Virus record (IMG/VR): IMGVR_UViG_3300010354_000002
Location: 1 to 64,000 of that record
Length of the DNA stretch: 64,000 bases
Strand: one strand, 5' to 3'
From: a virus
The notes under the pieces are model-generated. The model did not search any database and was not told the DNA's origin. It saw only the letters and a list, made by a program, of their open reading frames with translations. This document shows positions 1 through 57,960 of this stretch, piece by piece (the first letter of the stretch is position 1; every line of letters begins with the position of its first letter). A program made the translations under genes and the position numbers.

Positions 1-174
1 CCAGAGTCTCTTGCGGAAAACGACACTTTGGACAAAGCAGTCCGAATCCATTCCAAACCGTTGGATGAAACCGATCCTGACAAAATTAACGCTGAGTTGT
101 CGGATCTGATCCATAACGATGCGTTTCAGCGTAGAATTTTGCGTGGACTTTTGGCGTCCGTTGCGAAGGATTGA
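1..174 (+). CDS. 3-prime end of an unrecognised phage protein (partial)
   Basis: The frame starting at base 1 is open through the first 57 codons and stops at the TGA at 172-174, so the gene begins outside the window. The visible tail is acidic and helical-looking (KPLDETDPDKINAELSDLI). Nothing identifies a family. Its stop overlaps or abuts the start of the giant module protein, so it is the upstream member of the same plus-strand operon. Confidence 0.6.
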   Translation, partial: PESLAENDTLDKAVRIHSKPLDETDPDKINAELSDLIHNDAFQRRILRGLLASVAKD

Positions 175-176
175 AA

Positions 177-3100
177 ATGGGTAACGACAAGACATTCAAG
201 CCTACTTCGTCAATGATTGCGGCAGCGAAGCGGGCTTTGGCATGGAAAGATCAAGGGCATCCCGGTGGTACGCGTATTGGATTGACTCGTGCTAATCAAA
301 TTGCTTCAGGTCGCCCATTGAGTCTCTCCACCGTGAAACGGATGCATTCATTCTTCAGTCGCCATGCTGTTGATCGCAAGGCTACGGGATTCAAAACCGG
401 TGAAGAAGGGTTCCCGTCGCCGGGGCGAGTGGCGTGGGATTTGTGGGGCGGGAATGCTGGTCGAACGTGGGCTGCTCGGATTAGTCAATCATCAGACATT
501 GTAAAAGCGGAAACCCCCGAGCCAATCGGAAATGTTCAGTTCGGCAAAGGTGGCAAACAGTTCGACCCATCAAAGGTTTTGCCGCGTGGAAATCCTGCGG
601 ATTATGCAGGAGTTACCCCCGGGCATCAAGGTTACTTCCCCCAACACTTGCCAGATAATGCTTCACAAGATAAATGGCATTCACGCCAACCCACTTCTGA
701 TCTGATCCGAGCAAGCGCACGCCTTGAAGACAGGGCACGATCAGAAGGCAAGGCGATGGAACTTATTACGCCTGAAAAATACCATAACCTATTGGCAAGC
801 CGTGGCGTTCATCCAGACGAGATGGCGTTGTTTGGTGTTCACAAGGAACAATCGGATTTCCACCCGTCCAAAGGTCGAACCGCCATAGGCTGGCATAACG
901 AGGTTCTCAACCGGGGTGTTGGGTATGCCACTCGTCAATTCCCACAAGATGGCCCGGTTAGTCTTGGTCACCTAAGCGTGAACACTATGCATAACGGCGA
1001 TCAAGTTCCGTATGGAGAAAGCCTGTTTTCAATTTCGGCACCACACCACACATTTTCCAATAACGTTTTCCCAAAGTCTTATCATCATATGTCTGGAAAT
1101 GGCATGCTCCTTTTCTGGCATAGGTTTGAAACATTGCCCGATCCCGAAAAACCAAACGGGAAAACCATCTTTACGCAAGAGGTGCAGTCCGATGCCAATC
1201 AAGGTTGGCGCAAGGAAGGCGATCCTCAGGCTTATGGTCGCCAATCATGGAATGAAAAAGATTATGCCCCTCTAACCGATGTGTTGTGGAGGAGTGATGA
1301 GGATGCGCAAAGGCGAGCCGGACATAAAGAGAATAATGGCGAAATAGCCCATCCCGAAACCTACAGCCCTAATCATGTTGTGCCGCCGTTTGGCGACAAT
1401 TGGGAGGAAGAGGCTGTCCCTTGGATGTTGCATGACGCCATTGTAAATCATGGTGCCAGTGGAATTATTCTGCCTCCTCACGATCCAGATGCTGGAATGA
1501 TTCACAACGGAGAAGTTGAGCAAGGTCCTGATGAACACATTGCGCGTCGGTATGGCAAGACTATTCCCGACATAATCAAGGCTATTCATGCCGCATGGGG
1601 TGGCGATCTTAAGGAACGCACGGTTTCTGACTTTGTAAGTAGTAAGAAGAAGTCAGTGCCGGAATATCGCAATCTGCTCCAACGACTGCCCGATGTATCC
1701 AATCTTGTTACATACAACATAGCCGACGAGGCGTCTGCGCATGCGGATAGCATTATTGGGGATGGTTCGGCGGAGCAAGTATACAGACTCTTGCGATTGC
1801 TAGGGCGTCGAAAAGATCTCGATCCAGACGAAATGCATCCTCAAGGGACTACAGATAACCCTCACGCCATAACGCCAAGTGCCTTTGATATGCAACGGTT
1901 GTTGCATCTACTTATGATGCGTTCAAGGGCAGAGTCACCGCAGACCGACAACCTTGAAATAAGAATGACCGATCCGAAATCAGGCGACAGGATAAATCAT
2001 GGGCCTTACAGGCTAACCTCTCCGCACTCACTCGGTCTTGAAGGTCGTGCGACTCGTCATAGGTTCAATGAAAACGAATTTTCTAGGTCATATACGAGAT
2101 GGCTGCCCAACAAAGACTTGGGTTTGGATGGACATGCCTATGATTTGAATTATCTCAACGATCATGCACGTGATCATAACTCAGTGCAACAATCCATGTA
2201 CAACATGGTATTGAACCATCTCGCCAACACCAAGGCGTTTGGGGGCAACAACGAAAACGTTGATCATATAGATGTGTCTGTAAAACCACATCGTATTGCA
2301 AGTGGCCTTGGCCTTCTTGACCTCAAAGATCAAAATGGGCATTCTTACAGGTTGGACCCAAGCATTCTGACCTACAAGCGCAGATATCAGGCATATGAAT
2401 TAGCAAATCTTTTGAGCCAACAATCTAGGGGCGATGCGGACATTCCAATGCAATTGGCATCTGATGCACGCCGCGTGTTTGGCAATTACAAGACGCGTTA
2501 CGATGACAAATACTCTCAAGATCATACTGGACTGCCCGTTTATCACTATCGTTTTCCGCAGGAGATGGTTGACTACTTCCAACAACACAAGTACTCGCCG
2601 TTCCGAGGCTTGAAACGGTTCCTCCGCGCCGGCGATCACCTGCGTAACGTAGTCAAGTCTGCAAAGCCGCGTCCCATAATTATTGCCATCAAGGCAACTC
2701 CTGCGGATGAAAATGTAACACCCGTTAAATTCGGGAAGGGAGGGAAGCCATTTGATCCATCACAAATTGTTCCAAAAGGTAATCCCAACGACTACGGAGG
2801 GCACACTTCTCCGTTCAGTTTGAGTGGTGATCCAAGGTCGGACTTGCTACGCGCGTCTCAACGTATTGTTGACCGTGCCAAACTGTCCGGTACGGAGCAC
2901 TCTCCACTCAATCCGTCTCAATACCATAATCTGTTGCTAAGTCGCGGTGTTGACCCATATGAGATAGCCCTCCATGGAGTACACAAGGATCAGCATCCGA
3001 CAGATTCGCTTCATACCCCAAGCGGTTGGAACGACATTGTAAAAAACAACGGTCTTCAATACATCACAAAAGTCCATTCAAGCAACAACAAATATGGCGA

Positions 3101-6100
3101 AGCGATTCCAAACGACAGCGCACAGCACGGCGCGGCTCGTAAGCCGCGCCTATTCCAATATAGTTTCACGACAAAAGTGCATCAAAAAACAATTCCCTAC
3201 TACGAAGATGTCCTTCAGTTTGGGACTACGCATCCCGGCAAAGAAATAAATCAGTCTCTATTTCCGCATTCCAGACATCATTACGGTGGCACGAACGATA
3301 GCCTGATGCTGACCCATGCCCGCTACGAGGTTATCCCGGACAGTAAGAACCCGGGCAAGAACATAGTTGTCATCCAAGAAGTTCAATCAGACCCAAATCA
3401 AAATTGGAGAAAATCCGCTAGCAAGTCGTCCGGTCGCCGTGCCGTCGAAACGGACTTTGCGCCTCCCGAAGATGTATTTCATCGCAATGGATACGAGAGG
3501 ATGACAATAGGAAAAGAGCGAATCGCAAATGGCGATGTGAAAGATCCTGCTAACTATAATTCGCAAGCGACTGTGCCGCCGTTTGGTGACCAATGGGAGG
3601 AAGAGGCTGTCCCGTGGATACTTCACAATGCGGTAGTGCGTCACAACGCCAGTGCGGTCATGTTCCCGCATCAAGATTGGCAGAATGGTCAGATCGGCAA
3701 CACTGACGATCATGTTGCTCGGCGTAATGGACAAACACTGCCGTCAATTGTCAATCAAATTCAAAAGGCTTGGGGAGGAAACGTTAGTCAAGAATCAATT
3801 GACGATCACCTTGACACTGAGTATGTGCCTAAAGAGTTATATGACTTACTGGAAGACGTGCGTTTTCAATGGCCAATTCATAAACTCCTGAAAACAGCCA
3901 ACATTGGCTTGCATAAAAAAATGCATGGCTCCACGTTGTCAAATTTGTCTGACAGCCGCGACGAATTGTTTAATTTCGTCACTGAAAATGCCAATATAGT
4001 CAACTCAAATGGCGAAATCACTTCGCGGAAACCCGTATTAACGGATCGTGTCATTGATAACATTACTCAGTGGTTAAATTCTCGGGACGACACCGAACGA
4101 AATGATTTGCAAATCAAATTCATTGATCCTGACAAAGGCCAAGTGTTTTCAGGATATATACCTGCCATTTTTGATTGGGGGGTCAGGTCAATAAAGGATC
4201 ACATCCGTAACGACGGTGCAGACAGTTATAGGGTTTTGCCGCATCCAACATCTGCACATAATGAAAAATCAGTGGTAGTGCCTGATGGCGATGTTGATGC
4301 AAATTATATTTATGACTATTATCCAGAACTTTTGTCATTTCACAACAGAATGGCAGATCAAATGACGCAACCTGTACAAGACAGATATAGTGCGCATATT
4401 CGTGACAGCAGCCCAATTAAACAACAAATGACAGATCCCAATGTCTTTCAAGACTCAGGTCAATATGACAAGTTGCTCAAACAACTACAAGACCTCATCG
4501 AAAACAATTCGTGGGAAATGCATACTTCTTCGCCATGGCTGGACAATTTCTTCAATACAAATCGGTTCGTAGACGCAAATGGCGAATTATTTACTATCGC
4601 AAGTCCAGTATACAAAGAAAAAATTTCGCCTACTGACATGCAGAGACGACTTTCTGATATGAATAACCCCGGTCAATTGTCAGGCCTTCCTGCGTTGGAA
4701 AGACTACAAGATATGAGGGATGATCTTCAAAAGAATGGTTTGCCTCAACAACCACATGCAACGATGCCTTTGGTCACATACCGCATTCCTGATGAGATGA
4801 GCGACTTTTTCCGTACGCATGGATATTCTCCATTTGGCGGTATCAAAAAGTTTTTGAATGCCTCTCCTAACCTGCAACGGCTGGTCAAGGGGTTGCATAA
4901 CAACGCCAAGGCCGTCGTCATTGTGAAAGCAAATCCAGAGAATGAACCGAATCAACCGTCGCAATTTGGCAAGGGCGGAAAGCCATTTGATCCATCCAAA
5001 ATCATTGCTCGCGGCGAACCGTCCGATTATCCGGGGAAAACAATAGATCCGTCTGCACACCACGATTTTCAATGGATGGGTTTCAGGCCGTTTAATCCCG
5101 ACAACTCACAACGTTTGAAGTCATCTTCTCATCATGTCAGCCTTCAAACGATACACAGGAGTGACCTATTGCGTGCCGTGGATCGCATTGCGAACCGTTC
5201 TATAAAGCAGGGGACTGCCAACAGTCTTATTACCGCAGACAAGTACCACGATCTATTGGCTAGCAGAGGCGTCCATCCTGAAGAAATGGCTCTGCACGGA
5301 GTTCACAAGGGGCAATCAAATATTCACCCCGCCGAAGGCAGGACGGCGATTGGCTGGGCGCAGCAAGCACGAAAAAGCCCAGTTTCGTATTTCAACATTG
5401 ACACGCATCAAATGCCCAACATTGCGTTTCACGATTCGTCGCCAGATACGCGTTACCGAGAAATCGTTTTTCACATGATGCCTATAGAACATTATACGTG
5501 GCCCACCGATTTGCATCAGTTTTCTACGTCTGGTGCGCATTACCGTTCATATGGTCAGGGATTGCCATTGCACCACGCTCGTCTTGAAGAAGAGCATTGG
5601 CCGGATCATGGAAAAACATGGGTCGTTCAGGAAATTCAGAATGACGTTGCGCAGAAATACATACGCAACGCCCAGAAAACAAAGGCAGAGGTTGATGGTG
5701 TTGTTTACGACAAAAACAATCCTCCAACGGTTAACCATGATGACTTTGCCCCATTGCATGACGTCGCTCATCAGACACCAGAGGAGGCTACAGAGCGAGC
5801 AAAACTAGGCAATAGGCTGATGCGGGGTAGACATGGCCAGTTGTCAGTAGTTCCGTTGTTGATGCCTCCAATGGCGGACACATGGGACACACATGAAGTG
5901 TTGCCATGGCTTGTTGCGTCTGCCATTGACTCTGGAGCGACCGGGATGACATTGCCCCATGAATCATGGGAAAACGGCCAGATCGTTGACAAATCTGCAA
6001 TCAAGCCTCATCTCAAGCGTCGTTACGGCACTACCTTGCCTGAATCGCTGAGGGAGTTGCACAAGCAATGGGGCGGCATATTGCAGACGTCGTCGCTCAA

Positions 6101-7067
6101 GGAGTTGAGCGGGAACCGCTATCCTGAGTCTAGACGTCGTGCTGAAGTAGAAGAGGCATTCAAAGAACTGGACAAAAACCCGATTGTTGGAGTGCTTGAA
6201 GAAGGTGGACGTAAACTTCACGAAAAGTTCAATGACAAGGACAACCTTAGGGGAAATGTCACCGTTCATAAACGGGTTGATGGCGATCTTGAACAACACC
6301 AGTTGGATTTGACAGACGACGAAGTTGATCAAGTGCATCGCGAATTGCAAAACGAGATTGGAGACGAGATCGGCCATCACAACTCAGGCTATGTTCGTGT
6401 TCTGATACCAAATAAGAACATTGAACTAAGCCGAATCTGGGGAGTACGTCCATACGGTTTGGCGGAAAACGACATTAGAGATCGCATCGCTAATCGGAGT
6501 CAAACCAAAGAGGAAACAGAACATGCGCATCGCATGTCCTTGCCCGAGCGTGCCACTGATTTGGCTCATGCATCTATGGATGCACATTACGGCGTACTGA
6601 ACAACTTGTCTGCGGAAATTGAGGATCACAACGACTGGAATCCCGACAATCAGATTGAAGATGATGATGACATGGTTTTTGAGTTTGGTTGGCCGCACCA
6701 GTTAGAGTCAACATGGATTTCTCCAATAAAGTCAAGAACACTTCTAGAAATCAACCGCGCCCCATATTCAGTGCAGGTAAAGCGGAAAGTTGGCGACATA
6801 TGGAATGCCAGACCTAGTACGAATGCACGTCAGGATGCCTATTCTTTGATGCTGAGACTTCAGAACAAAGAGCATCCTTACCGTGAGTCTCCAGTTATGT
6901 ATTGGAAGTTCCCACCGGAACTGATAGATCATGTAACCAAACATGGCTACGCCCCATGGTCTGGAGCGCGATTTGGCAGGGCATTTGACCACTTGCGGAA
7001 CGTCGTAAAATCCGTTGGCAAACAGTCGGTTGTGATCATGGCGGGAAGTAGTGGTAGACGAAAATGA
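177..7067 (+). CDS. Giant three-module polyvalent-type virion protein (about 2296 aa)
   Basis: I chose ATG 177 because GAAGGA lies 7 bases upstream; a TTG at 171 is also in frame. Residues 1-105 form a domain common in phage head or packaged proteins, with GGTRIGLTRANQIASG, SFFSRHAVD and RVAWDLWGG. Three homologous modules of about 700-735 residues follow, at roughly 120-845, 850-1585 and 1594-2296. Each opens with FGKGG(K)xFDPS and contains RSDLLRA, a SRGVHPxE..GVHKxQ block, an E-[VI]-Q-[SN]-D-x-x-Q motif, a VPW...HNGQI/RRxGxTLP/AWGG block and a C-terminal HGYxPxxG..HLRNVVK block. The EVQSD motif and C-terminus resemble the QSDWHQ...MPLF domain of phage polyvalent proteins. A role as a packaged, ejected protein is inferred; the enzymatic activity is unknown. 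Confidence 0.75.
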   Translation: MGNDKTFKPTSSMIAAAKRALAWKDQGHPGGTRIGLTRANQIASGRPLSLSTVKRMHSFFSRHAVDRKATGFKTGEEGFPSPGRVAWDLWGGNAGRTWAARISQSSDIVKAETPEPIGNVQFGKGGKQFDPSKVLPRGNPADYAGVTPGHQGYFPQHLPDNASQDKWHSRQPTSDLIRASARLEDRARSEGKAMELITPEKYHNLLASRGVHPDEMALFGVHKEQSDFHPSKGRTAIGWHNEVLNRGVGYATRQFPQDGPVSLGHLSVNTMHNGDQVPYGESLFSISAPHHTFSNNVFPKSYHHMSGNGMLLFWHRFETLPDPEKPNGKTIFTQEVQSDANQGWRKEGDPQAYGRQSWNEKDYAPLTDVLWRSDEDAQRRAGHKENNGEIAHPETYSPNHVVPPFGDNWEEEAVPWMLHDAIVNHGASGIILPPHDPDAGMIHNGEVEQGPDEHIARRYGKTIPDIIKAIHAAWGGDLKERTVSDFVSSKKKSVPEYRNLLQRLPDVSNLVTYNIADEASAHADSIIGDGSAEQVYRLLRLLGRRKDLDPDEMHPQGTTDNPHAITPSAFDMQRLLHLLMMRSRAESPQTDNLEIRMTDPKSGDRINHGPYRLTSPHSLGLEGRATRHRFNENEFSRSYTRWLPNKDLGLDGHAYDLNYLNDHARDHNSVQQSMYNMVLNHLANTKAFGGNNENVDHIDVSVKPHRIASGLGLLDLKDQNGHSYRLDPSILTYKRRYQAYELANLLSQQSRGDADIPMQLASDARRVFGNYKTRYDDKYSQDHTGLPVYHYRFPQEMVDYFQQHKYSPFRGLKRFLRAGDHLRNVVKSAKPRPIIIAIKATPADENVTPVKFGKGGKPFDPSQIVPKGNPNDYGGHTSPFSLSGDPRSDLLRASQRIVDRAKLSGTEHSPLNPSQYHNLLLSRGVDPYEIALHGVHKDQHPTDSLHTPSGWNDIVKNNGLQYITKVHSSNNKYGEAIPNDSAQHGAARKPRLFQYSFTTKVHQKTIPYYEDVLQFGTTHPGKEINQSLFPHSRHHYGGTNDSLMLTHARYEVIPDSKNPGKNIVVIQEVQSDPNQNWRKSASKSSGRRAVETDFAPPEDVFHRNGYERMTIGKERIANGDVKDPANYNSQATVPPFGDQWEEEAVPWILHNAVVRHNASAVMFPHQDWQNGQIGNTDDHVARRNGQTLPSIVNQIQKAWGGNVSQESIDDHLDTEYVPKELYDLLEDVRFQWPIHKLLKTANIGLHKKMHGSTLSNLSDSRDELFNFVTENANIVNSNGEITSRKPVLTDRVIDNITQWLNSRDDTERNDLQIKFIDPDKGQVFSGYIPAIFDWGVRSIKDHIRNDGADSYRVLPHPTSAHNEKSVVVPDGDVDANYIYDYYPELLSFHNRMADQMTQPVQDRYSAHIRDSSPIKQQMTDPNVFQDSGQYDKLLKQLQDLIENNSWEMHTSSPWLDNFFNTNRFVDANGELFTIASPVYKEKISPTDMQRRLSDMNNPGQLSGLPALERLQDMRDDLQKNGLPQQPHATMPLVTYRIPDEMSDFFRTHGYSPFGGIKKFLNASPNLQRLVKGLHNNAKAVVIVKANPENEPNQPSQFGKGGKPFDPSKIIARGEPSDYPGKTIDPSAHHDFQWMGFRPFNPDNSQRLKSSSHHVSLQTIHRSDLLRAVDRIANRSIKQGTANSLITADKYHDLLASRGVHPEEMALHGVHKGQSNIHPAEGRTAIGWAQQARKSPVSYFNIDTHQMPNIAFHDSSPDTRYREIVFHMMPIEHYTWPTDLHQFSTSGAHYRSYGQGLPLHHARLEEEHWPDHGKTWVVQEIQNDVAQKYIRNAQKTKAEVDGVVYDKNNPPTVNHDDFAPLHDVAHQTPEEATERAKLGNRLMRGRHGQLSVVPLLMPPMADTWDTHEVLPWLVASAIDSGATGMTLPHESWENGQIVDKSAIKPHLKRRYGTTLPESLRELHKQWGGILQTSSLKELSGNRYPESRRRAEVEEAFKELDKNPIVGVLEEGGRKLHEKFNDKDNLRGNVTVHKRVDGDLEQHQLDLTDDEVDQVHRELQNEIGDEIGHHNSGYVRVLIPNKNIELSRIWGVRPYGLAENDIRDRIANRSQTKEETEHAHRMSLPERATDLAHASMDAHYGVLNNLSAEIEDHNDWNPDNQIEDDDDMVFEFGWPHQLESTWISPIKSRTLLEINRAPYSVQVKRKVGDIWNARPSTNARQDAYSLMLRLQNKEHPYRESPVMYWKFPPELIDHVTKHGYAPWSGARFGRAFDHLRNVVKSVGKQSVVIMAGSSGRRK

Positions 7068-9871
7068 GTCAGGATGCAATCAGGGTCAACGCAAGCGCGT
7101 GTTGCAAGTTCTTTGACTATGAGGACGCGCTCGTTCAGATGATTTCCAAAAGTGTCAATGAGGGCGTGGACCCTATTGGCTCTCGCATTGACCCTGACAC
7201 AGGTATTCGCTACGCTGCGTACGAACCCGCAAAGTGGAAAGATGTCTCGTCTAAGACAGGACGATCACGGCTTGCTGACAACAAGGCATTCAAGCAAAAA
7301 TTTGGCAAGTTGATTGATCTCTCCAAGGGCGACCCCATTGGGGTTCGGCTCAACATCAACTTCCTAAACAATTTCGGTGTTCCAGTCCAATCTGTGCATC
7401 AAGCCAAGACGGCCAATCCATGGTCCGAGCCAGTTGTTGCGTATTCCCATGCAGTAACTGTTCGTAATCCAGAGTTTCAAGTGCATCAGAAAGGCGTGTA
7501 TGAAATAGCGAATCGCATAAAATCTAAATATCCAATGGCGGCAGTTGTTGGTGAATATGTGCCTACGCCTCCAGACATGCATCGCGTGGAAGGCGAAATC
7601 GTTTCCTTCAACCCAATGCGTTCGCACCTATTCACTACTGTTGTCAATGACAGGCATGTACCGGTCAAATCTGTGCGCGGCACAGTCACGATCCATGGCA
7701 CACGAGTTTATGTACACCCGGGTAGCACAGTTGAATATTGGGGAGATGATGCGCCCGAACCGTATCGCCCAGTTGTCAAGGCAGTAGAGAATGCCAATGA
7801 ACAGGCGGGAAACGCAATAAAATTTGGCAAAGGGGGCAAACCCTTTGACCCATCGCAGATTGTGCCACGTGGCAACCCCTTGAATTATCCCGGCAGAACG
7901 TCCTACCCGTCTAGAGGAGTCGCCGCTGGATCGAGTCTATTATCCACACACCGATCCGATCTACTACGTGCGGCAGGGAGACTTAGTAGTCTAGCCGATA
8001 TAAAGGGCACCACTCACGAACTCATAACGCCTCACAAATATTTCAATCTTTTGACCAGCCGGGGCGTTCACCCAGACGAAGCCGCCATTTTTGGCGTTCA
8101 CAAAGGACAAGCCAACTTGCATCCCGCCGAAGGCATGACGGCCAAGGACTGGGAGAAATCCGTATATGACAGGGGAATCAGTTATGCTACGTCTGAATAT
8201 ACTGGCGACGACATCCAACTTCCCGGCATGCATTTTAAAACCATGGACACTTCGTTGCGTCCTGAATACAAAGAATGGTCCAAGACACTTGGATCAAACA
8301 AATACGCAAGCAATTTAAAAGCAGAAGGCATTCTGTCTGCGGCAAATTTAGCCCATTTTCCACATCCCACAGTGGGAATGTCGTTGCAACACGCTCGTTT
8401 TACAGATGAAACATGGCCTGAAAAGGGTCGCACGTTAGTCCTTCAAGAGGCGCAAAACGACGTTGCGCAAAAATGGAAAAAAACCGCAAGCCGTATCAAA
8501 GAGGCTACGTCTGGGGTTCGGGATGCAAAAGCCACCGAAGCCGACTTGTTGCCATTGCATGACGTACTATGGCAACCCGGAAGTCATTTTATGAATTTGG
8601 GGGGCCTTCAACGCACCCTTAGCGGCATGCCGGTAGTAGTGCCTCCAATGGCAGAGTCAAATGGAGGCTGGGACTATGCAGAATTTATGCCTTGGCTAGT
8701 GTCCACGGCAATTGAGCATGGTTATAAAGGTGTCACATTGCCGCATCCTAAATGGATGAATGGATACGTTGAGGATCGTCCCGAGCAACATGTCAGCCGT
8801 AGAGCCGAGCGTCTTGCCGAGGCTATGCAAGCAATGCATCAGGCATGGGGAGGGGAACTGACAAAGGATTCATTGGAGAACCTAAGTGGTCGCCCTGCGC
8901 TTACGGGTGATTTGAACGGTTACTACAACGCTATGCGCGAACGTCCAATCTTAAGTTGGCTTGGGGATGCATCAAAGGAAATCCATCAGAAAGCGAATGA
9001 CCAAGAATGGGTTTCGTCTCAGTTGAAAAAGTCAAGGCCCGATGATGCTTCTGGAGAGTTGGATGATCGCGTCTGGTCTGATTGGCAAAAAAACGTCCTC
9101 AACAAACCGATTAGTTTCAACCTTGCTATTGAGTTGCCCACGAAAACAGGTCAAATAGCAAAACCCATATCATTGAGCACAGACCAATGGGGCAATATAA
9201 TATCGTGGCATGACGACCAATTTAGTTTGCCGATAAATCCAAGTGGACGCCTTGCAGATCCATTGGGGCCGTTTGAAGGGCATGTATACGGTCCGGGCGA
9301 AAATATGAGCGTGGGGCAGATTGAGAGTTGGAACGACAAATTTGAAAGACTTCAAATCGCTGTACATAAGGCGATTGCCAGACATAACAATGAAGCATTT
9401 CAGAATCCATCTTCTGACAATGTGCCGTTGTCACCTGAAGATCATGTGACTCTTCAATTGCATATGGCTGAACCGTTCGTAAGTCAGGACAAGGGCGATC
9501 TTGTCGTGGGGCCGTTGGTGCCTTTTGCCTCAACCAAAGTCAAAGTTTCAGATTTGGCAAACCTTAATCCAACTCCCTACCCGGATCTGATGAAGCGCAA
9601 TAACCCATTAGTCGAACCTATCAGTTGGAAGGATGTTGGCTGGAGAACCATGCCTGTGTGGCACTGGCAATTCCCTCAAGAATTGATTGATCATGTTATG
9701 ACGCACGGCTACGCGCCATTCCGCGGCTTGGAAAAGTTCAATCGCGCCAACGAGCATCTGCGCAATGTAACGAAGGCAGTTCGACAAAACACTTCAAGGA
9801 TGCGCCGCAGGCCGGTGATCATACACTGGAACAGCCCTGTACAATCGTCATACGCATCCCGCTCCCGATGA
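7064..9871 (+). CDS. Single-module paralogue of the giant polyvalent-type protein (935 aa)
   Basis: ATG 7064 overlaps the previous stop by 4 bases (ATGA). Residues 1-245 are unrelated to the upstream protein and unrecognised, with a patch GTVTIHGTRVYVHPGSTVEYW that looks beta-rich. Residues 248-935 are a fourth copy of the module: FGKGGKPFDPSQIVPRGNP, RSDLLRAAGR, SRGVHPDEAAIFGVHKGQ, LQEAQNDVAQKW (the QSD motif changed to QND), LPHPKWMNGYVED, MHQAWGG and a C-terminal HGYAPFRG...HLRNVTK. The closest relative is module C of the upstream protein, which also has QND. Co-translation with it is likely. Function unknown; probably the same class of ejected protein. Confidence 0.75.
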   Translation: MSQDAIRVNASACCKFFDYEDALVQMISKSVNEGVDPIGSRIDPDTGIRYAAYEPAKWKDVSSKTGRSRLADNKAFKQKFGKLIDLSKGDPIGVRLNINFLNNFGVPVQSVHQAKTANPWSEPVVAYSHAVTVRNPEFQVHQKGVYEIANRIKSKYPMAAVVGEYVPTPPDMHRVEGEIVSFNPMRSHLFTTVVNDRHVPVKSVRGTVTIHGTRVYVHPGSTVEYWGDDAPEPYRPVVKAVENANEQAGNAIKFGKGGKPFDPSQIVPRGNPLNYPGRTSYPSRGVAAGSSLLSTHRSDLLRAAGRLSSLADIKGTTHELITPHKYFNLLTSRGVHPDEAAIFGVHKGQANLHPAEGMTAKDWEKSVYDRGISYATSEYTGDDIQLPGMHFKTMDTSLRPEYKEWSKTLGSNKYASNLKAEGILSAANLAHFPHPTVGMSLQHARFTDETWPEKGRTLVLQEAQNDVAQKWKKTASRIKEATSGVRDAKATEADLLPLHDVLWQPGSHFMNLGGLQRTLSGMPVVVPPMAESNGGWDYAEFMPWLVSTAIEHGYKGVTLPHPKWMNGYVEDRPEQHVSRRAERLAEAMQAMHQAWGGELTKDSLENLSGRPALTGDLNGYYNAMRERPILSWLGDASKEIHQKANDQEWVSSQLKKSRPDDASGELDDRVWSDWQKNVLNKPISFNLAIELPTKTGQIAKPISLSTDQWGNIISWHDDQFSLPINPSGRLADPLGPFEGHVYGPGENMSVGQIESWNDKFERLQIAVHKAIARHNNEAFQNPSSDNVPLSPEDHVTLQLHMAEPFVSQDKGDLVVGPLVPFASTKVKVSDLANLNPTPYPDLMKRNNPLVEPISWKDVGWRTMPVWHWQFPQELIDHVMTHGYAPFRGLEKFNRANEHLRNVTKAVRQNTSRMRRRPVIIHWNSPVQSSYASRSR

Positions 9872-11124
9872 TAGACTCTGACAAACGGAACTCAGGTGAC
9901 ATGATGGAAAACATTCCAACGCAAATTTCTCCGATGCATCTCGGGGAACTGTCTCGGCTTACAAAAATCCCGCTGTGGAATCCAGACGATCCGCTTTATT
10001 CCGTGCAGGATTCCACATTGATGAACAACCCTTGGCTGCGGGATTCCACGAGGATTCACATTCCTCTCGGCTCTCTATTCGCCGAAAAAGCCATTTCGGT
10101 GCCATCCTTTGCTCCGTCTATCCCAGAGTCTAATATTGACCCGGTAGGCCGCGTGGGTAGTCAGCCGTCTACGGCTCGTGTTAAGACCGGCACAACCCCC
10201 GGCGGGTTGTCTGCCGCACTGGAAGACCCAGACAAAGTTGCAATGGCAAACCATCTTCTAGCGGCGTTGGAGGTTGATCCTCGCACGCAGAGCAGCGCAT
10301 TGTTGCACCGTGCTGGCATTGGCCCTCACCGCATTCGATTCCGCCCGAAATTTGGCGGTTGGGAGGAGGAAGGCAGGCCGCATGTTGACCCGTACCTTGC
10401 GGTTGACGTTCCTTCGGACAGACAAGGCAATCCCGAAGACCATATCATTCAACGTCTGCGGCATATCTTTGGCCAGACTGCTGTTGGAACTGAAAAAGCC
10501 ACGCATGCCGCAGGCAATCCGAATGCAATTGGTATTCGTGGTGATTTTGACAGGCCGTTTAGCGAGCGAGAGGCTCTGGAATTGACGCAAAAAATGGTGC
10601 AGGGCGGTGGTGGTTTTGCGCCGGACGTGTATCCCGGTGACAGTCATGCCCGGTCAATTTTGTATCCATCTTCAAGCCACCCCAGCAATCCAACACTGTC
10701 GGAAGCCACGGGTGGCGATCAAGGTTATCGTGGTGGAGTAATCCCATATCATCATATGGCGTCCATTCAACAGGCCGCCGATGCGGCCGACAGGGTTCTC
10801 CGTGACCATGGGGCACGCAACACTCGTATTTTCGGCCTGAAGACGGGATATTTCGATCCCGAGATCGCACCGGACATCATGGGACATCCCGGTGTACAGG
10901 AAGCAGTTGAACGACTGGCTGCAATTCGTCAGGGACGATACGGCCTTGCGAAGGGCGTGGAAGATGCACCGGAATCCGAGGATGACATGAATGCAAAAGT
11001 CGCCAAGGTGATGCAAGAATTCAAGGATGGGACATTGAAAACCAGTTCTGGCGAGACTGTTACAGACCGAGATCAGGCAATTGCGATTGCCTTGTCCGAG
11101 GCTGGTAACTCCCGCAAGGGGTAA
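9868..11124 (+). CDS. Phage protein with C-terminal DUF6496-like domain
   Basis: The frame can start at ATG 9868 (ATGA overlap with the upstream stop, no SD). ATG 9904 is also plausible because AGGTG lies 5 bases before it. The last 40 residues (VMQEFKDGTLKTSSGETV then DRDQAIAIALSEAG) match the DUF6496-type domain, frequent at the end of phage and environmental proteins and predicted to bind nucleic acid. The middle is unrecognised, with GGWEEEGRPHVDPYLAVDVPSD and a glycine-rich stretch. It sits inside the operon of giant module proteins, which suggests a virion or ejected role, but this is inference. Confidence 0.7.
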   Translation: MIDSDKRNSGDMMENIPTQISPMHLGELSRLTKIPLWNPDDPLYSVQDSTLMNNPWLRDSTRIHIPLGSLFAEKAISVPSFAPSIPESNIDPVGRVGSQPSTARVKTGTTPGGLSAALEDPDKVAMANHLLAALEVDPRTQSSALLHRAGIGPHRIRFRPKFGGWEEEGRPHVDPYLAVDVPSDRQGNPEDHIIQRLRHIFGQTAVGTEKATHAAGNPNAIGIRGDFDRPFSEREALELTQKMVQGGGGFAPDVYPGDSHARSILYPSSSHPSNPTLSEATGGDQGYRGGVIPYHHMASIQQAADAADRVLRDHGARNTRIFGLKTGYFDPEIAPDIMGHPGVQEAVERLAAIRQGRYGLAKGVEDAPESEDDMNAKVAKVMQEFKDGTLKTSSGETVTDRDQAIAIALSEAGNSRKG

Positions 11125-11126
11125 TC

Positions 11127-11771
11127 ATGTATTCCGTATTCGTTCGGACGGGGAGGGTTGGCAATCAACCCTCCCTTCAATATGGAAGGCCAGTCTATGG
11201 CGACGCCAAGCGACCTGCCGATGTAAGGTGGCTCGGGGTCAATGACCATGACTGTGCTATGTCTATCAAACGGACTCTAGAGCGAGTGGGCGACATGATT
11301 CGCAATGTGGATCATTCATTGTTCGTAGAACTGTTGCGTTGGGCATTGTTGGATTCCAAAGAGATTGGGGTATCCGAGAATGTTGGCCATGCAGTAGCAA
11401 AGCAGATATGGGACGAGTGGACGAAGTCCAAGCGGAATCGCATTGCCCACAAGGCCGACTCATTCACTGACGAACAACGGCTGGAACTTGCCATGGCATA
11501 TGTACACGGTCGCGCTGGAGCATTTCAGTTGCAACCTGTGCACATACCGCACAACAAGATTTTGACTCTTGCGACTCCAATCGGAGTTTTATATAAGAAC
11601 AACAGAGAGTCAAATGTTGCAGATTTGCAAAAAAACTTGACGCCGGAAGGGATCAAGGTTGTCAGGTTGACTATAGGTAAGCATCAAGTTGAACAGCCTG
11701 ACTTGGCTGGCGATCAGAGATTTGCGGTCATCAACCCGACTGCGGGGAAAAAAAACCATGCGACGTACTAA
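11127..11771 (+). CDS. Hypothetical protein, 214 aa
   Basis: ATG 11127 is preceded by AAGGGG at a good distance and lies two bases after the previous stop. I do not recognise the protein. Residues 50-130 are rich in Trp, Leu and charged residues with a helical look (LFVELLRWALLDSKEIGVS, IWDEWTKSKRNRIAHK). The C-terminal 60 residues contain hydrophobic beta-type stretches (KILTLATPIGVLYK, IKVVRLTIGKHQVEQP). No membrane segment or metal motif is visible. Its 3-prime end overlaps the next gene's start by 14 bases, so it belongs to the operon. Confidence 0.6.
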   Translation: MYSVFVRTGRVGNQPSLQYGRPVYGDAKRPADVRWLGVNDHDCAMSIKRTLERVGDMIRNVDHSLFVELLRWALLDSKEIGVSENVGHAVAKQIWDEWTKSKRNRIAHKADSFTDEQRLELAMAYVHGRAGAFQLQPVHIPHNKILTLATPIGVLYKNNRESNVADLQKNLTPEGIKVVRLTIGKHQVEQPDLAGDQRFAVINPTAGKKNHATY

Positions 11772-13785
11772 AAAGCGTCTGCTGATCATCACAAAATCCC
11801 ACACGAATCCTGTGATGCATGAGCCGAAAGAAGGGCCGATTTCTGGTCTCGGTTCTCTGGAAGTCTTGCTGGCGTCTACCGTTCCAGACAACGAAAGGCA
11901 TGCCTCGCATCCGGTCATTGCCAAGGGAATACGCGTTGCGCCGATAGTCAAATCTGTCATTGGGGACAATCCTGACAATGGTGGACGTTATTTTGGTGCG
12001 CCACAACATGCATCTCCTCCAAGATATGGCGATCTGGATCGCGAAGCATCAATGCACCTCGCACCGCCATCGCATATGTCATCAAATTTGATGCGTTTTG
12101 TTCACTCATACATTAATAACTTTGTGCAGGAACAGCCGGGTAAAAAGATAACGCCATCCGATGTGTTGAAGAAGGTTTCGGAGTCCAAACTGTTTTCCAC
12201 TCCTGAAATCAAAACCGTTCTTGGCCATCATGGTTTTTCAGCCGAAAAGCCTGTTCATCCACAAGAATTCCTGACGCATATTGACGAAGGCAGGTTTGAC
12301 GGAGAAAATCCCCATCCTGAAAAAATACATCTTGAAACACGCATGATCCCCGGTCGTACAGATCGCTCGGGTCATTGGTACAACGACCGATTCAAGGATT
12401 TGCGCCCATGGTCGGAGCATGATCATCTGGAATTGGTAAATGGTGCAACTGGCAATATCTATCGCCCATATGTAGAAGACTCATACCGGGTCCATCTGTT
12501 GAGCGCGCCACACATAGGTCCCGAAGAATCACATTTTCCATTTGGCTCCTATGCCAACATGCCTCCCGGAACGCACAAAAACGGCGGTGTTGCGCATGCT
12601 CGCGGCTACGATGTAGAGGATGAGAATGGCAAAGTCTACAGTGTAACGTCTGAGCATCAATCTGATGTTTTGCAAGCAGGGCGGGGAAACACAAGATTCA
12701 AGACTCGTCCCAAAAAAGATCCCAGTGGCAATGTCATTGCTGGATCGGAGGAGGTCGTAACCGATCACTGGGGGTCGCCTCAGGTTGTATCCATTCCGCA
12801 AGAGACAGCCATAGGCGGAACTGATGATTGGCACAAAGCCATGCTCAATGCCACCATTGCCCATGCTCTGGAAACCGGCAAGGATGGCATCGAGTTTGGC
12901 GATCCGTCCATGATGAACGGTATGTGGGTTAGGCCGGATCATAGATCCGAAGCCATGAACGTGCATTACGACAGCAAGGCACGGAAGCATCTTGAGCAGT
13001 TTGCAAAACAATTCGGTGCGTCGGTTGAATATGTTCCCTATATGCTGAATTACCATGAGGCCGACAAGGCATTGGGCGAGGGACGCCAGTCGGTGACAGA
13101 CGAGGCTGCATATAGGCGTCAAGGTACTACTGATCGGTTTCGCAATACGCTGAAATTGCTTGCCGCACGTCAAAAATTGCCAAATGTTGACCCCAACAAC
13201 GTCTTTGGGATGAATGTACATTCTTTGGTTGACAGCCTAACCGAGTCCCGTGCACCGGGGCGAAACAGGACGCATCTTTTTACTCCCGAGCAATTAGCGC
13301 AACAGGCCAATGAAAACGGAGTTACCAATGTAAATGGTCAACCTATGAAGCCGGAGGACGTTATGACTGCTGTGGATTTCTGGCAGGTACTACATCAGAT
13401 GTATCACGATCATTCGCGAATGTATGATCGTGATAGCCAACCAGATCCACGGCTGGAACTCCTGAAAGAAAAAAACCCCGATGCCTACGAGGCCGTGAAA
13501 TCATGGCCGAAAGACAGGCCGGTAATCGTTCGCCCACGGCTTACATTTACTCCCGAAATGAAGGCGTTTCATCAGAAACAGGGGGTTGGGTTATGGGGCG
13601 TCAGCGGACCTGAAATGAACAACAAGATTGAAAATGCCATATCTAACTCGCCAGACAAGAAAAAAGATGGAAAGCAACCAACCCCTGAGGAATGGGTGAC
13701 GATACGTCAGAAAGCATCCTCGATGGGTGTTGATGTCAATACATTGTTGCGCCAAGGCATCTTGCGGGAATTGCGTGGCTTGTAG
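11758..13785 (+). CDS. QSD-module protein of the polyvalent family (675 aa)
   Basis: I placed the start at ATG 11758, with GGGGA about nine bases upstream, rather than the longer in-frame start at 11689 that lies inside the preceding gene. The protein is a divergent, single-module relative of the giant protein. It has SEHQSDVLQAGRG near residue 300, an aromatic-helix block GTDDWHKAMLNATIAHALE with GIEFGDPSMMNG near 350-380, and FTPEMKAFHQKQGVGLWG near 600. The FGKGGKPFDPS opening is absent. The order QSD motif, W..A...A..G helix, then TPEM...G matches the known polyvalent QSDW domain more closely than the fused modules do. Confidence 0.7.
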   Translation: MRRTKKRLLIITKSHTNPVMHEPKEGPISGLGSLEVLLASTVPDNERHASHPVIAKGIRVAPIVKSVIGDNPDNGGRYFGAPQHASPPRYGDLDREASMHLAPPSHMSSNLMRFVHSYINNFVQEQPGKKITPSDVLKKVSESKLFSTPEIKTVLGHHGFSAEKPVHPQEFLTHIDEGRFDGENPHPEKIHLETRMIPGRTDRSGHWYNDRFKDLRPWSEHDHLELVNGATGNIYRPYVEDSYRVHLLSAPHIGPEESHFPFGSYANMPPGTHKNGGVAHARGYDVEDENGKVYSVTSEHQSDVLQAGRGNTRFKTRPKKDPSGNVIAGSEEVVTDHWGSPQVVSIPQETAIGGTDDWHKAMLNATIAHALETGKDGIEFGDPSMMNGMWVRPDHRSEAMNVHYDSKARKHLEQFAKQFGASVEYVPYMLNYHEADKALGEGRQSVTDEAAYRRQGTTDRFRNTLKLLAARQKLPNVDPNNVFGMNVHSLVDSLTESRAPGRNRTHLFTPEQLAQQANENGVTNVNGQPMKPEDVMTAVDFWQVLHQMYHDHSRMYDRDSQPDPRLELLKEKNPDAYEAVKSWPKDRPVIVRPRLTFTPEMKAFHQKQGVGLWGVSGPEMNNKIENAISNSPDKKKDGKQPTPEEWVTIRQKASSMGVDVNTLLRQGILRELRGL

Positions 13786-13797
13786 AATGGTAGTGTC

Positions 13798-16700
13798 ATG
13801 CCCAATCCATCCGCAATAAATGCCCATAGGCAGTGGTGGCGACAAAATCGTCCTGCGCGTGTTGCCCGCGAAGAGTTCGTACCAATCATCATCCGACACG
13901 GCAAGGATGATGAGATTGGCAGTTTGGCATATGCCGCTCGTATCCACGGGCCACAGGATCAAATTGCGCGTGCGTTTGCCAGTGCAGGCACAGTGGAGAA
14001 AGCGATCTCGGACGGTCGTTGGATTACCCTCCATCCAAATGGCAAAGACGAAGCAGGACATCCTGTTTTGATCAAGGACAACCCAGACGGTACGGCCACC
14101 ATTGTTGGTGGAATTGGTGGGAAACTCAATGGGTTTCGCATGTCTCTGGTGCGATCCGAAGATGATTACAAGGCCGAGATTGCCAGCCGTGGGAAAGAAG
14201 AGCGCGCTCGCCTGAAAGCCGAAAAGGAGGCCATCATTGCCGCCCAAGGCGCGGAGGAATACAACCGCCATCAAGAGGAATTGGCCTTTGACAAGGAGCA
14301 ACGAAAGGCTAAAAAACTAGAAGCCGCAGAGCATCTGGCGCGAACCGTACTGACGGCGCAAGGCATCAATGCAGACTCTGTTCTGGAAGTCCCTGACGAG
14401 GTTATGGCGGCCGCCAAGAGTCCCAAACAGGCCGAGCGAATCAAGGAGGCGCATGTGCTTGGTGTCGCCAAGCATGCTCGCCAAGTAGCCCAAGAGGTAC
14501 GTCAGAGGGTAGTCACAGCACTTGAGGCCCAGCAGCCCGTCGAAGGCGTCGCATTTGCGGATATCGTGCGAGAGGCATTGTCTGGGAAGACGCCGGGATA
14601 TGCAGTGAATCCTGAACGCATTGCGGTATCCCGAGGAATTGCGCCAAGCCCCGAATCAATCGGTGATATCCGTGAACAAAGTTTCCTGCTACGCGCAGAC
14701 AATGACGAGGCACTTGCGGCGCAACGCATGGCCAGCGTTGCCAAATTGCAGGCCGGGGCGGCTTCTGCTAGGGCCGCAATAAAAGATGCGCTAGAGGCGT
14801 CTGCTGTCCACGGAGCGGGGCCGCACGCCCTCGGTGGCATGAATGCCAAGCCGGTGGACGTGGAGAATGCTGGTGCCATTCTTGCGGCTGCAAATGCCTA
14901 CCGCGAGGCGAGCAGATCCAAGCCGCCTGCTGGCATGCGCTCCGTTGCGCCAGTGACGTTCCATCCAGATCACGAAGGCGAGGATATTCCAGTCCAGTCG
15001 CTAATGGATGAATTGCGAACCCGGGCAGTTTCCAAACTTGTTGACATAAGCAACAAAGAGGAAGCAGCAGGGAACTCGTTATATTCGCACATCTCATCCG
15101 GGCGGTATGCAGAACTAGCCGGAATCACCGGACAGTTGCTTCCGGGCGCAACAGTTGACCCTGCCTTGGTGGACTTCCTCGGGTCGGAAGGTGCATCGCA
15201 TCTTGTGGCACTAGCGGCCTTGGAAACCGTGGGGCAGGAAGGTCTCGCAAAATACCGGGACGGCCTTGTGCAGAGTCATCTGGATAGGCAAGTCGCACAA
15301 TGCGACAAGGCTGTAGATGATGCCAGTGTCCTGATGAACAGGGCTGGTGCTCCGCTGTCGTTCGATGCGGACAATGCGCAGTCCATGATTGCTACGTGGG
15401 GTGCGATTGCCGAACGCAACCAACTGCTTTCAACTGCGCGTGAGCATCTCGGCAAAGCCCGGGGACGTCTGGAGGCTACGGCGTCTGCCATCAAGGCAAT
15501 TGATGGAGTATTGATTAATCCCGACAGGGGGCTGTCGGTCACCGTGCCGGGGTCATACAAGCAAGTTGCAACCATGGCGGCCGTCATGTTGCCGGGGTTG
15601 GAATTGGGGCGAGACTATACTCTGGTCTCCCCCGAATCCAATCTTATGGCGTTGGATATCACCGCAGATGGCGTCCGTAAACTGGCGTCGTCATCTGGCC
15701 TTTCAATCTCCGACGATGTGGCGAAGAGGCTTGAAGTTGTGCGTCAATCCGCAAATACGAGTGGCAAACTGCCACTTGGCCTTCGCAGGGAGATTGATGC
15801 GAAAGGCCCCGTGCACGGAGCCGCGACAACGGAATATGGCGAGTTGTCCGATAAAGAGCACGCCATGATTCGATCCTATTGGTGCGAAAGCCAAGGCATT
15901 GAAGCGGCGCAGGAATGCGATCCGTTTGGAGTACTGAAGCCAGATCAGGAACCAGTGTGGCGTCGTTATCAGGATGCTGTGAACAACGGCAATGAAGTTG
16001 AGATGATGCAGTCTGATTTGGCTGGGCGTTTTGACGCCCTTTCCAAGTTGGACTTGGATGACAACAAGGCGGTGATCGGATTCGGCAGCCGTATGGCTGA
16101 CATCTTGGGTCTGGATGTGGTTGCCGATGCGAATGGCAATCCTATCTCCATTCCGCAATTGGATGCACGCAAGACCGAGTACAACAAAGCCAGATTCATG
16201 CGTCCGCGCATCATCAAGTTTATGCGCACCTTTTGGGCCGCGACCCAAGGGGCAGACTATTTCGACCCGGCAAACATCAAGCCTGTGTCGAAGGCTTGGG
16301 CGTCGTTTGTCCAGCGTAGCGGTGGCGATATGGCCGCTGTAGCCAGCGTGCAAGATCAAATGAAGCAAGACCCGGATGTCATGGTCATGCAAGGCAAACC
16401 ACTTCGCCTTACCGATGGCCAAGAGCGCATGATCGGGATGATCATTGGAAACCGCAGGATGGCGGCTGGCCTTGGCGCAGGTGCTGGCAAAACCTTGGTT
16501 ATGATGGGGTCGTTTGCCCAATTGCGAAACGATGGGCAAGCGCAACGAGCATTGATCGCTGTCCCATCTGCTGTGGTCGGTCAGTTTGAATCCGAGTGGA
16601 ACAAGTTCGTAGATCCGCAATATGGCATGACCATGCATGCGGCTACCGGTAACGCCGCTAAGACGTCCGAGGCGATGGGCGGGGCGGCTGATTTTGTGGT

Positions 16701-17904
16701 GATGACGCACGAGGGTCTGCGTAAGCGGCTGTTGGATGCGTGTGCGGATGAGATGGGTACAACGTCAGATCGTGCTGGTGATGCATTGCTCAACATGCCT
16801 CCAGCCGAGGTTGACCAAGTGCTCCACAAGGCGATGCACCGTAACAACTGGGACTTCGACTACGTTGCCTATGACGAAGGACACAAAACGCTAGGGCGTG
16901 CTGGCAAAGAGGAGTCGTTGCTCTCCACGCTTCTGGACTCTGCCGCTCGCTTGCGGACACAGGACGGAAAACTTCCCTACTACGTGTTCGCAACTGCCGA
17001 CCCGGCGAAAAACGACGTCAGCGAATTGCATAGCCTGCTTGGCAAGATTGACCCCGAGCGGTTTACGCCCGAGAATCGTGACCAGTTCGTGCGTTCTTAC
17101 GGGCGTAACACCGAAGATTGTGCGGTTGCCCTGCGCAACATGATGTCCCCGTACATCTATACGCAACCAGCAGAGGTGCCTGTGAAGCAAACCCGGGATG
17201 ACGTGATCGTGCCATTGACTGAAGAAGAACGCCAGACGCACGACTCCATCCAACAGGCTTATCAGGCGGCCCGTCTCGGAAGAGCCATGGGAACGCCTAA
17301 TGTGGAGGCAGAGAAGATTCTAGGGGCGACCAATCCCAAGGCCTTGGCACTGTCGCGGGACAATGCCATCAGCCGAGCATTGCTCTGGAGTCCGTCCAGC
17401 AGCAAGGCAAACTGGGTGAGGAAAAAACTCCAGCAAGAGCAAGGGCGTGGCACGGTGATCTTCGCTCGTAATCGTGCATCGGTAGAAGCCCTCAAGAAGA
17501 TTTTGGAATCGGACGGGCATCGTGTTGACACTCTGACGGGTGCGGACAGCGGTGTGGGCAAGCGTAAGAAACGCGAGGCATTTCAGAACGAGGAACATGA
17601 CATTCTCATCTGCACCGATGCGGCAGAGGCTGGAATGAACCTTCAACGTGGCAATCTGATGATCAACTTTGACGTACCTATGACGGCAAAGACGCTGGAG
17701 CAACGTATAGCCCGACAAGTTCGCATGGGTCAGCAGCGAGACGTTGATGTATTCAACCTTGTCTCCGATTGCCATTGGGATCGTCGAAACCTGCAACGGC
17801 TGAAGGGCAAAGGCACGTTGCGCGAAATCATTACCAGCCCGTTTGAGTTGTCCGACGATACAGGCCGTGTGGAAGAGCGAGTGCGGACGGAGGCTGGCGT
17901 ATGA
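13798..17904 (+). CDS. SNF2-like superfamily 2 helicase with N-terminal head-type domain (1368 aa)
   Basis: ATP-dependent DNA translocase of the SNF2 type. Residues 60-120 carry the SDGRWITLHPNGKDE...GGIGGKLNG segment found at the N-terminus of several phage head or packaged proteins. Residues 130-850 are mostly helical and Ala/Glu-rich. The helicase core occupies 880-1350: motif I GAGAGKT near 893 (unusual; many SNF2 proteins have DxGxGKT), motif II YDEGH near 1024, motif III-like ATADP, and motif VI EQRIARQVRMGQQR near 1300. As the last large gene of the module-protein operon, it is compatible with an ejected anti-restriction or genome-entry motor, as in DarB-like polyvalent proteins. The helicase call is firm; the role is inferred. 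Confidence 0.85.
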   Translation: MPNPSAINAHRQWWRQNRPARVAREEFVPIIIRHGKDDEIGSLAYAARIHGPQDQIARAFASAGTVEKAISDGRWITLHPNGKDEAGHPVLIKDNPDGTATIVGGIGGKLNGFRMSLVRSEDDYKAEIASRGKEERARLKAEKEAIIAAQGAEEYNRHQEELAFDKEQRKAKKLEAAEHLARTVLTAQGINADSVLEVPDEVMAAAKSPKQAERIKEAHVLGVAKHARQVAQEVRQRVVTALEAQQPVEGVAFADIVREALSGKTPGYAVNPERIAVSRGIAPSPESIGDIREQSFLLRADNDEALAAQRMASVAKLQAGAASARAAIKDALEASAVHGAGPHALGGMNAKPVDVENAGAILAAANAYREASRSKPPAGMRSVAPVTFHPDHEGEDIPVQSLMDELRTRAVSKLVDISNKEEAAGNSLYSHISSGRYAELAGITGQLLPGATVDPALVDFLGSEGASHLVALAALETVGQEGLAKYRDGLVQSHLDRQVAQCDKAVDDASVLMNRAGAPLSFDADNAQSMIATWGAIAERNQLLSTAREHLGKARGRLEATASAIKAIDGVLINPDRGLSVTVPGSYKQVATMAAVMLPGLELGRDYTLVSPESNLMALDITADGVRKLASSSGLSISDDVAKRLEVVRQSANTSGKLPLGLRREIDAKGPVHGAATTEYGELSDKEHAMIRSYWCESQGIEAAQECDPFGVLKPDQEPVWRRYQDAVNNGNEVEMMQSDLAGRFDALSKLDLDDNKAVIGFGSRMADILGLDVVADANGNPISIPQLDARKTEYNKARFMRPRIIKFMRTFWAATQGADYFDPANIKPVSKAWASFVQRSGGDMAAVASVQDQMKQDPDVMVMQGKPLRLTDGQERMIGMIIGNRRMAAGLGAGAGKTLVMMGSFAQLRNDGQAQRALIAVPSAVVGQFESEWNKFVDPQYGMTMHAATGNAAKTSEAMGGAADFVVMTHEGLRKRLLDACADEMGTTSDRAGDALLNMPPAEVDQVLHKAMHRNNWDFDYVAYDEGHKTLGRAGKEESLLSTLLDSAARLRTQDGKLPYYVFATADPAKNDVSELHSLLGKIDPERFTPENRDQFVRSYGRNTEDCAVALRNMMSPYIYTQPAEVPVKQTRDDVIVPLTEEERQTHDSIQQAYQAARLGRAMGTPNVEAEKILGATNPKALALSRDNAISRALLWSPSSSKANWVRKKLQQEQGRGTVIFARNRASVEALKKILESDGHRVDTLTGADSGVGKRKKREAFQNEEHDILICTDAAEAGMNLQRGNLMINFDVPMTAKTLEQRIARQVRMGQQRDVDVFNLVSDCHWDRRNLQRLKGKGTLREIITSPFELSDDTGRVEERVRTEAGV

Positions 17905-19446: not shown

Positions 19447-19465
19447 CTTAGTTTCTCCTTGATGT

Positions 19466-19516
19466 GGGCATTCTGCCCTACGCAGGTAGAGTACAACATC
19501 AGTTCTGTGTTGTCAA
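19466..19516 (-). promoter_or_regulatory. sigma70 promoter plus leader hairpin
   Basis: On the minus strand: -35 TTGACA (19511-19516), 17-bp spacer, -10 TACTCT (19488-19493), then a GGGCA/TGCCC hairpin at about 19466-19476 directly before the SD of gene 19237-19446. An A/T tract lies upstream of the -35 box. Confidence 0.7.
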
Positions 19517-19593
19517 CACCAAGCACACAAAAATTCCAAGTTTTTTTGGCATCCCCGCTACCGTCCGAAATGTGATAAAAAAGCGTTGTCATT

Positions 19594-19633
19594 GCCGCCC
19601 TGATGTTCCTGAGGGAGTGTCGGGTGGCTTTTT
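19594..19633 (+). terminator. Possible terminator or attenuator before the head operon
   Basis: GCCGCCC (19594-19600) can pair with GGGTGGC (19622-19628, one G-U pair), followed by TTTTT. It lies only 20 bases before the protease start, so it would either stop read-through into the head operon or attenuate its own leader. The long 21-base loop makes this weak. Confidence 0.35.
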
Positions 19634-19652
19634 GTCGTTTGGGGATAACGCT

Positions 19653-57887: not shown

Positions 57888-57960
57888 GGGGCGATCAGCA
57901 ACTAAGTTCTGCGAATCGCCCCGTGGAGAGATACTACTACGCCTGTTCGGCGTTGTCAAG
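57888..57960 (-). promoter_or_regulatory. Class I promoter-hairpin cassette
   Basis: Minus strand: -35 TTGACA (57955-57960), 17-bp spacer, -10 TAGTAT (57932-57937), a nine-base-pair stem CGGGGCGAT/ATCGCCCCG at 57888-57924 with a longer 19-base loop, AAAGGATT. The -35 lies inside the 3-prime end of the methyltransferase gene. Confidence 0.75.

What the first reader, a model, noticed from the sequence alone, without database searches (positions are those of the whole stretch)
177..13785. Seven-copy expansion of one QSD-module family, including three fused copies in a single protein
Seen: modules share E-[VI]-Q-[SN]-D-x-x-Q, SRGVHPxE...GVHK, VPW..HxA, GxTLP...AWGG and a C-terminal HGYxPxxG in the genes at 177-7067 (three), 7064-9871 (one), 11758-13785 (one), 51030-52304 and 52297-53574 (two). 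Known: QSDWHQ-type domains ending in TPEM..G(M)PLF occur in phage polyvalent proteins, packaged with the genome and ejected. Inferred: this phage has expanded the family massively, with diverged QND versions in two copies. The activity is unknown.
Basis: partly seen in the sequence, partly recalled or inferred. Interest (0 to 1): 0.78.

Follow-up and report, generated by a model that had tools for sequence, protein, structure and literature searches.

The report
Seven-copy phage effector-like domain family
This phage carries seven diverged copies, three of them fused in one giant protein, of a widespread but unnamed phage protein module that sits beside virion genes and looks structurally like an acetyltransferase, so it is probably an expanded set of packaged proteins aimed at the host cell; the activity itself is unproven.

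Summary
Three modules lie in tandem in the gene at 177-7067, one at 7064-9871, one at 11758-13785 and two at 51030-53574. A profile built only from outside QSDWHQ relatives picks out exactly these five proteins (E 2.5e-16 to 0.008). The next ORF scores 0.68, the best reversed decoy 1.9, and no shuffle of P0001, P0002 or P0005 reaches the real score. The full motif list, however, fits only the four big modules. The genome has 123-bp identical ends, so the count of seven is complete, against one, rarely two or three, in 40 related virus records. The family is common (over 600 viral-contig matches) but has no Pfam or NCBIfam model. It occurs in large polyvalent proteins and beside portal or internal-virion genes; here it lies between portal and protease/capsid genes and among tail genes. 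A confident model (pLDDT 90) of a canonical member draws almost only GNAT acyltransferases from the PDB, at non-significant E-values (best 3e-3); profile-profile comparison gives no support. Best reading: an expanded, diverging set of virion-carried, GNAT-like effector domains. Family and expansion are shown; packaging is inferred; acyltransferase activity is a hypothesis.

The parts
177..539 (+). N-terminal domain of the triple-module protein (about residues 5-117); in Roseobacter phages the same domain opens the capsid-protein gene right after the portal gene
   Evidence: phrog_2859 E 1.4e-30; tblastn 55% identity E 3e-25
540..2729 (+). Module M1 (QSD), 730 aa, first of three fused copies
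2730..4964 (+). Module M2 (QSD), 745 aa, second fused copy
4965..7067 (+). Module M3 (QND), 700 aa, third fused copy; closest relative is M4 in the next gene
7064..9871 (+). Gene with one module; residues 119-204 resemble mycobacteriophage L5 gp82
   Evidence: PF25735 E 6.7e-6, just under cut-off; phrog_586 E 7e-6
7823..9868 (+). Module M4 (QND), 682 aa
11758..13785 (+). Module M5 (EHQSDVLQ), most diverged copy, 675 aa
   Evidence: profile E 2.7e-6, 21.5 bits against at most 3.3 in 1000 shuffles
51030..52304 (+). Module M6 (QSDWHQ), 424 aa
   Evidence: profile E 2.5e-16; AlphaFold2 model
52297..53574 (+). Module M7 (QSDWHQ), 425 aa, 43% identical to M6 in BLASTP
   Evidence: profile E 5.6e-11; blastp E 3e-115 with M6
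540..611 (+). Repeated linker FGKGGKxFDPSxxxxRGxPxDYxG that opens each of M1-M4 (also at 2730, 4965, 7823)
13798..17904 (+). SNF2-type helicase directly downstream of the M1-M5 cluster (context)
   Evidence: PF00271 5.8e-17, PF00176 1.1e-9, phrog_62 2.5e-76
19464..20612 (+). Head maturation protease (context)
   Evidence: phrog_1028 E 1e-15
21285..22922 (+). Major head protein (context)
   Evidence: phrog_752 E 8.7e-36
53574..56558 (+). Tail protein directly after M7 (context)
   Evidence: phrog_1887 E 2e-5

Best explanation
M1-M7 are paralogous members of an unnamed phage domain family (QSDWHQ family). Members are encoded with the structural proteins, are most likely carried in the virion and ejected into the host, and have a GNAT-like (acyl-CoA N-acyltransferase) core: a beta hairpin ending in E-x-Q-S-D-x-x-Q, a helix after P..W, then helix-strand-strand and a C-terminal TPEM..G.PLF helix. 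A small helical domain precedes the core and a variable insert lies in it. The phage amplified the family by tandem duplication inside one gene and by gene duplication, and the copies diverged at otherwise invariant positions, as expected if they now act on different host targets or if some are inactive binders. Shown: family membership, copy number, pairing of duplicates, gene context. Inferred: packaging and ejection. Hypothesis: GNAT fold and acylation of host proteins, tRNA or small molecules.
For: Family. Expansion: 7 copies against 1, rarely 2-3, in 40 related virus records; 2 of 209 module ORFs carry two copies, plus the Dolichospermum phage ORF. Complete genome: 123-bp identical ends. 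Duplicates: ((M1,M2),(M3,M4)) 99%, M6+M7 100% SH-aLRT. Virion context: M1-M5 between portal and protease/capsid; M7 next to a tail protein; relative gp34 of phage HTVC028P lies next to a putative internal virion protein; the relative in MW202675 lies after a head-tail connector gene. Polyvalent context: fused with LPD38 and ART-PolyVal. Fold: canonical member modelled at pLDDT 90, pTM 0.83. About 48 of the top 50 PDB matches are GNATs or GNAT-like, including the ICL2 C-terminal domain that binds acetyl-CoA; the best-ranked named viral matches beyond the family itself are N-acyltransferases (E 2.4e-3, prob 0.75; NAT_SF prob 0.90). The separate M6 model has a GNAT as its top match, at a non-significant E 0.69.
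Against: No Foldseek PDB match reaches E 1e-3 (best 3.3e-3) and TM-scores are low (at most about 0.4 to the target). Profile-profile comparison with 28 GNATs is no better than with three decoy families, and Pfam and PDB sequence searches give nothing. The canonical GNAT pyrophosphate loop is not evident. Residues that are near-invariant in the outside family (W256, H257, G260, G264, Y399) are lost in several copies (the alignment around 399 is uncertain), so some copies may be inactive. Packaging has no direct evidence.
Confidence: 0.45

Rival explanations
1. The modules are ejected virion enzymes of a different, so far unrecognised alpha/beta fold; the GNAT resemblance is only a shared hairpin-helix-strand arrangement.
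For: Foldseek E-values above 1e-3 and low TM-scores; hhalign no better than decoys; Q-x-D-x-x-Q, H and R are not GNAT signature residues.
Against: Nearly every top PDB match is a GNAT, from several unrelated GNAT subfamilies, for a model with pLDDT 90; the M6 model also has a GNAT on top.
Confidence: 0.3
2. The modules are non-catalytic internal virion or ejection proteins; the copies are structural parts of the head or ejection apparatus.
For: Gene context in the head and tail operons and next to an internal virion protein in HTVC028P; several copies lost conserved residues.
Against: Polar residues (Y157, E159, H223, R234, Q253, D255, Q258) stand in 99-100 of 100 outside rows (partly biased by the seed motif), typical of enzymes; the family occurs as a mobile domain fused to ART-PolyVal and LPD38.
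Confidence: 0.17
3. The modules are ordinary early or replication-related proteins that only happen to lie in the structural region.
For: No virion proteomics; an SNF2 helicase and a methyltransferase are also in the genome.
Against: Both module clusters lie among head or tail genes, and two related phages show the same kind of neighbourhood.
Confidence: 0.08

Closest known systems
QSDWHQ domain family in uncultured phage proteins (no Pfam or NCBIfam model; inside PHROG 7348 at 1835-2104; BFVD entries such as A0A6J5QZ93)
   Same: Domain order: GVxxxE..GL helical part, H..N.aHxR, E.QSD..Q, P..W helix, TPEM..G.PLF; found by profile
   Different: Most viruses carry one copy; window copies lack parts of the canonical signature, and M1-M4 carry a 250-300 aa variable insert
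Polyvalent proteins (Iyer et al. 2017, PMC5512222)
   Same: Large phage proteins presumed packaged and injected; relatives here fuse QSD with LPD38 or ART-PolyVal; the paper names two GNAT families among polyvalent domains
GNAT superfamily, including the ICL2 C-terminal domain (PMC6788997) and phage GNAT Rac (PMC7552054)
   Same: Predicted order of elements and structural matches
   Different: No detectable sequence or profile similarity; larger, with a helical front domain and inserts
Dolichospermum phage Dfl-JY45 XAI97106.1 and IMG/VR loci L054, L111
   Same: Two QSD modules fused in one protein
   Different: Two copies, not three, and no seven-copy set

Membership tests
QSDWHQ phage domain family | Match to a profile built without window sequences | tested here: met
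   nulls
QSDWHQ phage domain family | Complete canonical signature E-E-[IV]-QSDWHQ-x-GR | tested here: not met
   Only Q-x-D-x-x-Q is kept in all seven; no copy has the whole signature
Polyvalent proteins | Several different effector or nucleic-acid domains in one polypeptide | tested here: not met
   No Pfam polyvalent domain in the module proteins
Polyvalent proteins | Encoded with virion genes | tested here: met
Polyvalent proteins | Packaged and injected with the genome | not testable with these tools
   needs virion mass spectrometry
GNAT superfamily | GNAT fold | tested here: inconclusive
   Foldseek matches nearly all GNAT but E at best 3e-3 and low TM-scores
GNAT superfamily | Sequence or profile match to GNAT families | tested here: not met
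GNAT superfamily | Acyl-CoA binding and acyl transfer | not testable with these tools
   biochemistry needed

The most novel reading that the evidence does not exclude
A large unannotated family of virion-carried phage proteins is a new GNAT-like acyltransferase clade, and this phage carries a seven-member set of it, including a three-headed fusion, with copies specialised for different host targets.
Probability: 0.33. Interest if true: 0.8.

Novelty: new variant of a known kind. Interest (0 to 1): 0.58.

Why it matters
The QSDWHQ family occurs in many hundreds of phage contigs and on contigs of genomes from many bacterial phyla, yet has no name, model or function in Pfam or NCBIfam. The structural lead gives it a testable activity, and this phage offers natural variants (QSD, QND, loss of WH) and a compact 424-aa member suited to biochemistry. 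If right, it adds a class of early host-modifying enzymes delivered with phage DNA.

Tried and rejected
Close relatives of M1-M7 in 50,697 phage records and in IMG/VR: none for the modules themselves. Relatives of this phage through capsid, SNF2 and portal proteins: only one 10.9-kb contig starting inside the capsid gene, no module region. Pfam, NCBIfam and PDB sequence searches of the family: nothing convincing. Profile-profile comparison with GNAT, and with NUDIX, methyltransferase and glyoxalase families as decoys: no discrimination. Placement of M5 in the tree: saturated branch, not interpreted. The repeated FGKGGK linker as a protease site: considered; no further F.KGG element in the eleven window proteins translated by then, left open. 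The Pfam and tblastn probe with which the outside family was first reached was a consensus written from memory; all later statistics rest on the database sequences it brought in.

Full report
Observation. The window is bases 1-64000 of an 83,161-base virus record. BLASTP among the seven modules links M1-M4 (E 1e-45 to 1e-89), M6-M7 (E 3e-115) and bridges M2 to M6 and M7 (E 2.5e-7 and 1.6e-6); M5 is not reached this way. To test membership without circularity I collected outside relatives of the QSDWHQ domain from IMG/VR, built a profile without any window sequence and searched every stop-to-stop ORF of the record. The five proteins come out on top (E 2.5e-16, 5.6e-11, 2.9e-8, 2.7e-6, 0.008), the sixth ORF is at 0.68, reversed decoys start at 1.9 (the first profile gave the same five). 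None of 1000 shuffles of the M5 or M4 protein, or 300 of the triple protein, comes near the real score. The finding is therefore real. The motif list is too generous: most listed motifs are specific to M1-M4. Residues common to all seven are H223, R/K234, Q253, D255, Q258, P275, W280 and A292 in the numbering of L169.

Copy number. The record starts and ends with the same 123 bases, so the genome is complete or terminally redundant and seven is the full count. In 40 related virus records the profile finds one module in most, two or three matches in a few, the extra hits often being fragments of one domain. Among 209 outside ORFs with the domain only two hold two copies; the Dolichospermum phage Dfl-JY45 also has two in one ORF. 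The tree gives ((M1,M2),(M3,M4)) at 99% and M6+M7 at 100% SH-aLRT; M5 sits on a saturated branch. So M3, the last copy of the fused protein, is sister to M4 in the next gene: the array grew by duplication across what is now a gene boundary. Each of M1-M4 begins with the same linker FGKGGKxFDPS. Most paralogue pairs match at both ends but not through the 250-300 aa between them (M3-M4 and M2-M3 do), so that insert evolves fast.

Context. Portal protein (record about 77.5-79.4 kb), then a leftward gene, then a gene that runs across the record end and stops just before base 177, then M1-M5, SNF2 helicase, head maturation protease and major head protein. M6 and M7 lie between a 1573-aa protein and a tail protein. 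The N-terminal domain of the triple protein is the same domain that opens the capsid-protein gene directly after the portal gene in Roseobacter phages. In Pelagibacter phage HTVC028P the family member gp34 is next to a putative internal virion protein; in MW202675 it follows a head-tail connector and an M15 peptidase gene and precedes a gene annotated as a type I restriction enzyme. Other members are fused to LPD38 or ART-PolyVal, domains of polyvalent proteins (PMC5512222). Packaging and ejection are thus a reasonable inference, not a shown fact.

Fold. The M6 model is good only in its core. A canonical member with 107 aligned sequences gives pLDDT 90.1 and pTM 0.83. Its order of elements (strand, two helices, hairpin, helix, strand, insert, helix, two strands, helix) resembles GNAT, though one strand before the hairpin seems to be missing. 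In the PDB about 48 of the first 50 matches are GNATs or GNAT-like domains: Mycobacterium tuberculosis ICL2, whose C-terminal domain is GNAT-like and binds acetyl-CoA (PMC6788997), a Bacillus acetyltransferase, SSAT, Eis, HAT1, GCN5. The best E-value is only 3.3e-3 and TM-scores are low. In the viral library 25 matches lie below 1e-3 (E down to 3.6e-31), which I take to be members of the family itself, and the next is an acyl-CoA N-acyltransferase. The M6 model on its own also has a GNAT first, at E 0.69. Against this, profile-profile comparison with 28 GNATs is no better than with NUDIX, methyltransferase or glyoxalase decoys, and GNAT is not among the Pfam families listed for 60 members. I rate the GNAT-like fold at about 0.6 and acyl transfer at about 0.4.

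Mechanism proposed. The proteins are made late, enter the head, are ejected with the DNA and modify host molecules by acyl transfer, as phage GNAT Rac and polyvalent GNATs are thought to act on host proteins (PMC7552054; PMC5512222). The copies have diverged: M1-M4 lost W256 and H257, M6 and M7 changed E251 to Q, M5 kept the QAGR part. This fits different targets or, for some, loss of catalysis. None of these steps beyond sequence and context is shown here. Conservation of the QSDWHQ stretch itself in the outside set is partly a product of the search patterns used.

Noticed in passing
window 1-123 and L004 19140-19262: Identical 123-bp ends: the record is a complete circular or terminally redundant genome; a gene reads across the junction and ends just before base 177.
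   Followed up: yes
window 57937-59736 (-): 599-aa DNA methyltransferase on the opposite strand, whose N-terminal part also matches DNA primase PHROG 864.
   Followed up: no
window 7418-7675: Region of the M4 gene resembles mycobacteriophage L5 gp82 (PF25735, E 6.7e-6, just below cut-off).
   Followed up: no
L111 4446-9398: IMG/VR protein of 1651 aa with two QSD modules and an ART-PolyVal domain; the second module is very diverged.
   Followed up: partly
window 21285-22922: Major head protein is distantly related to SPO1/Twort-type phage capsid proteins (25-28% identity over 40%), with only one closer relative found in IMG/VR (73%, L170).
   Followed up: partly
loci L179-L228: QSDWHQ relatives occur on contigs of 50 bacterial and archaeal genomes of many phyla, presumably prophages or stray phage contigs.
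   Followed up: no
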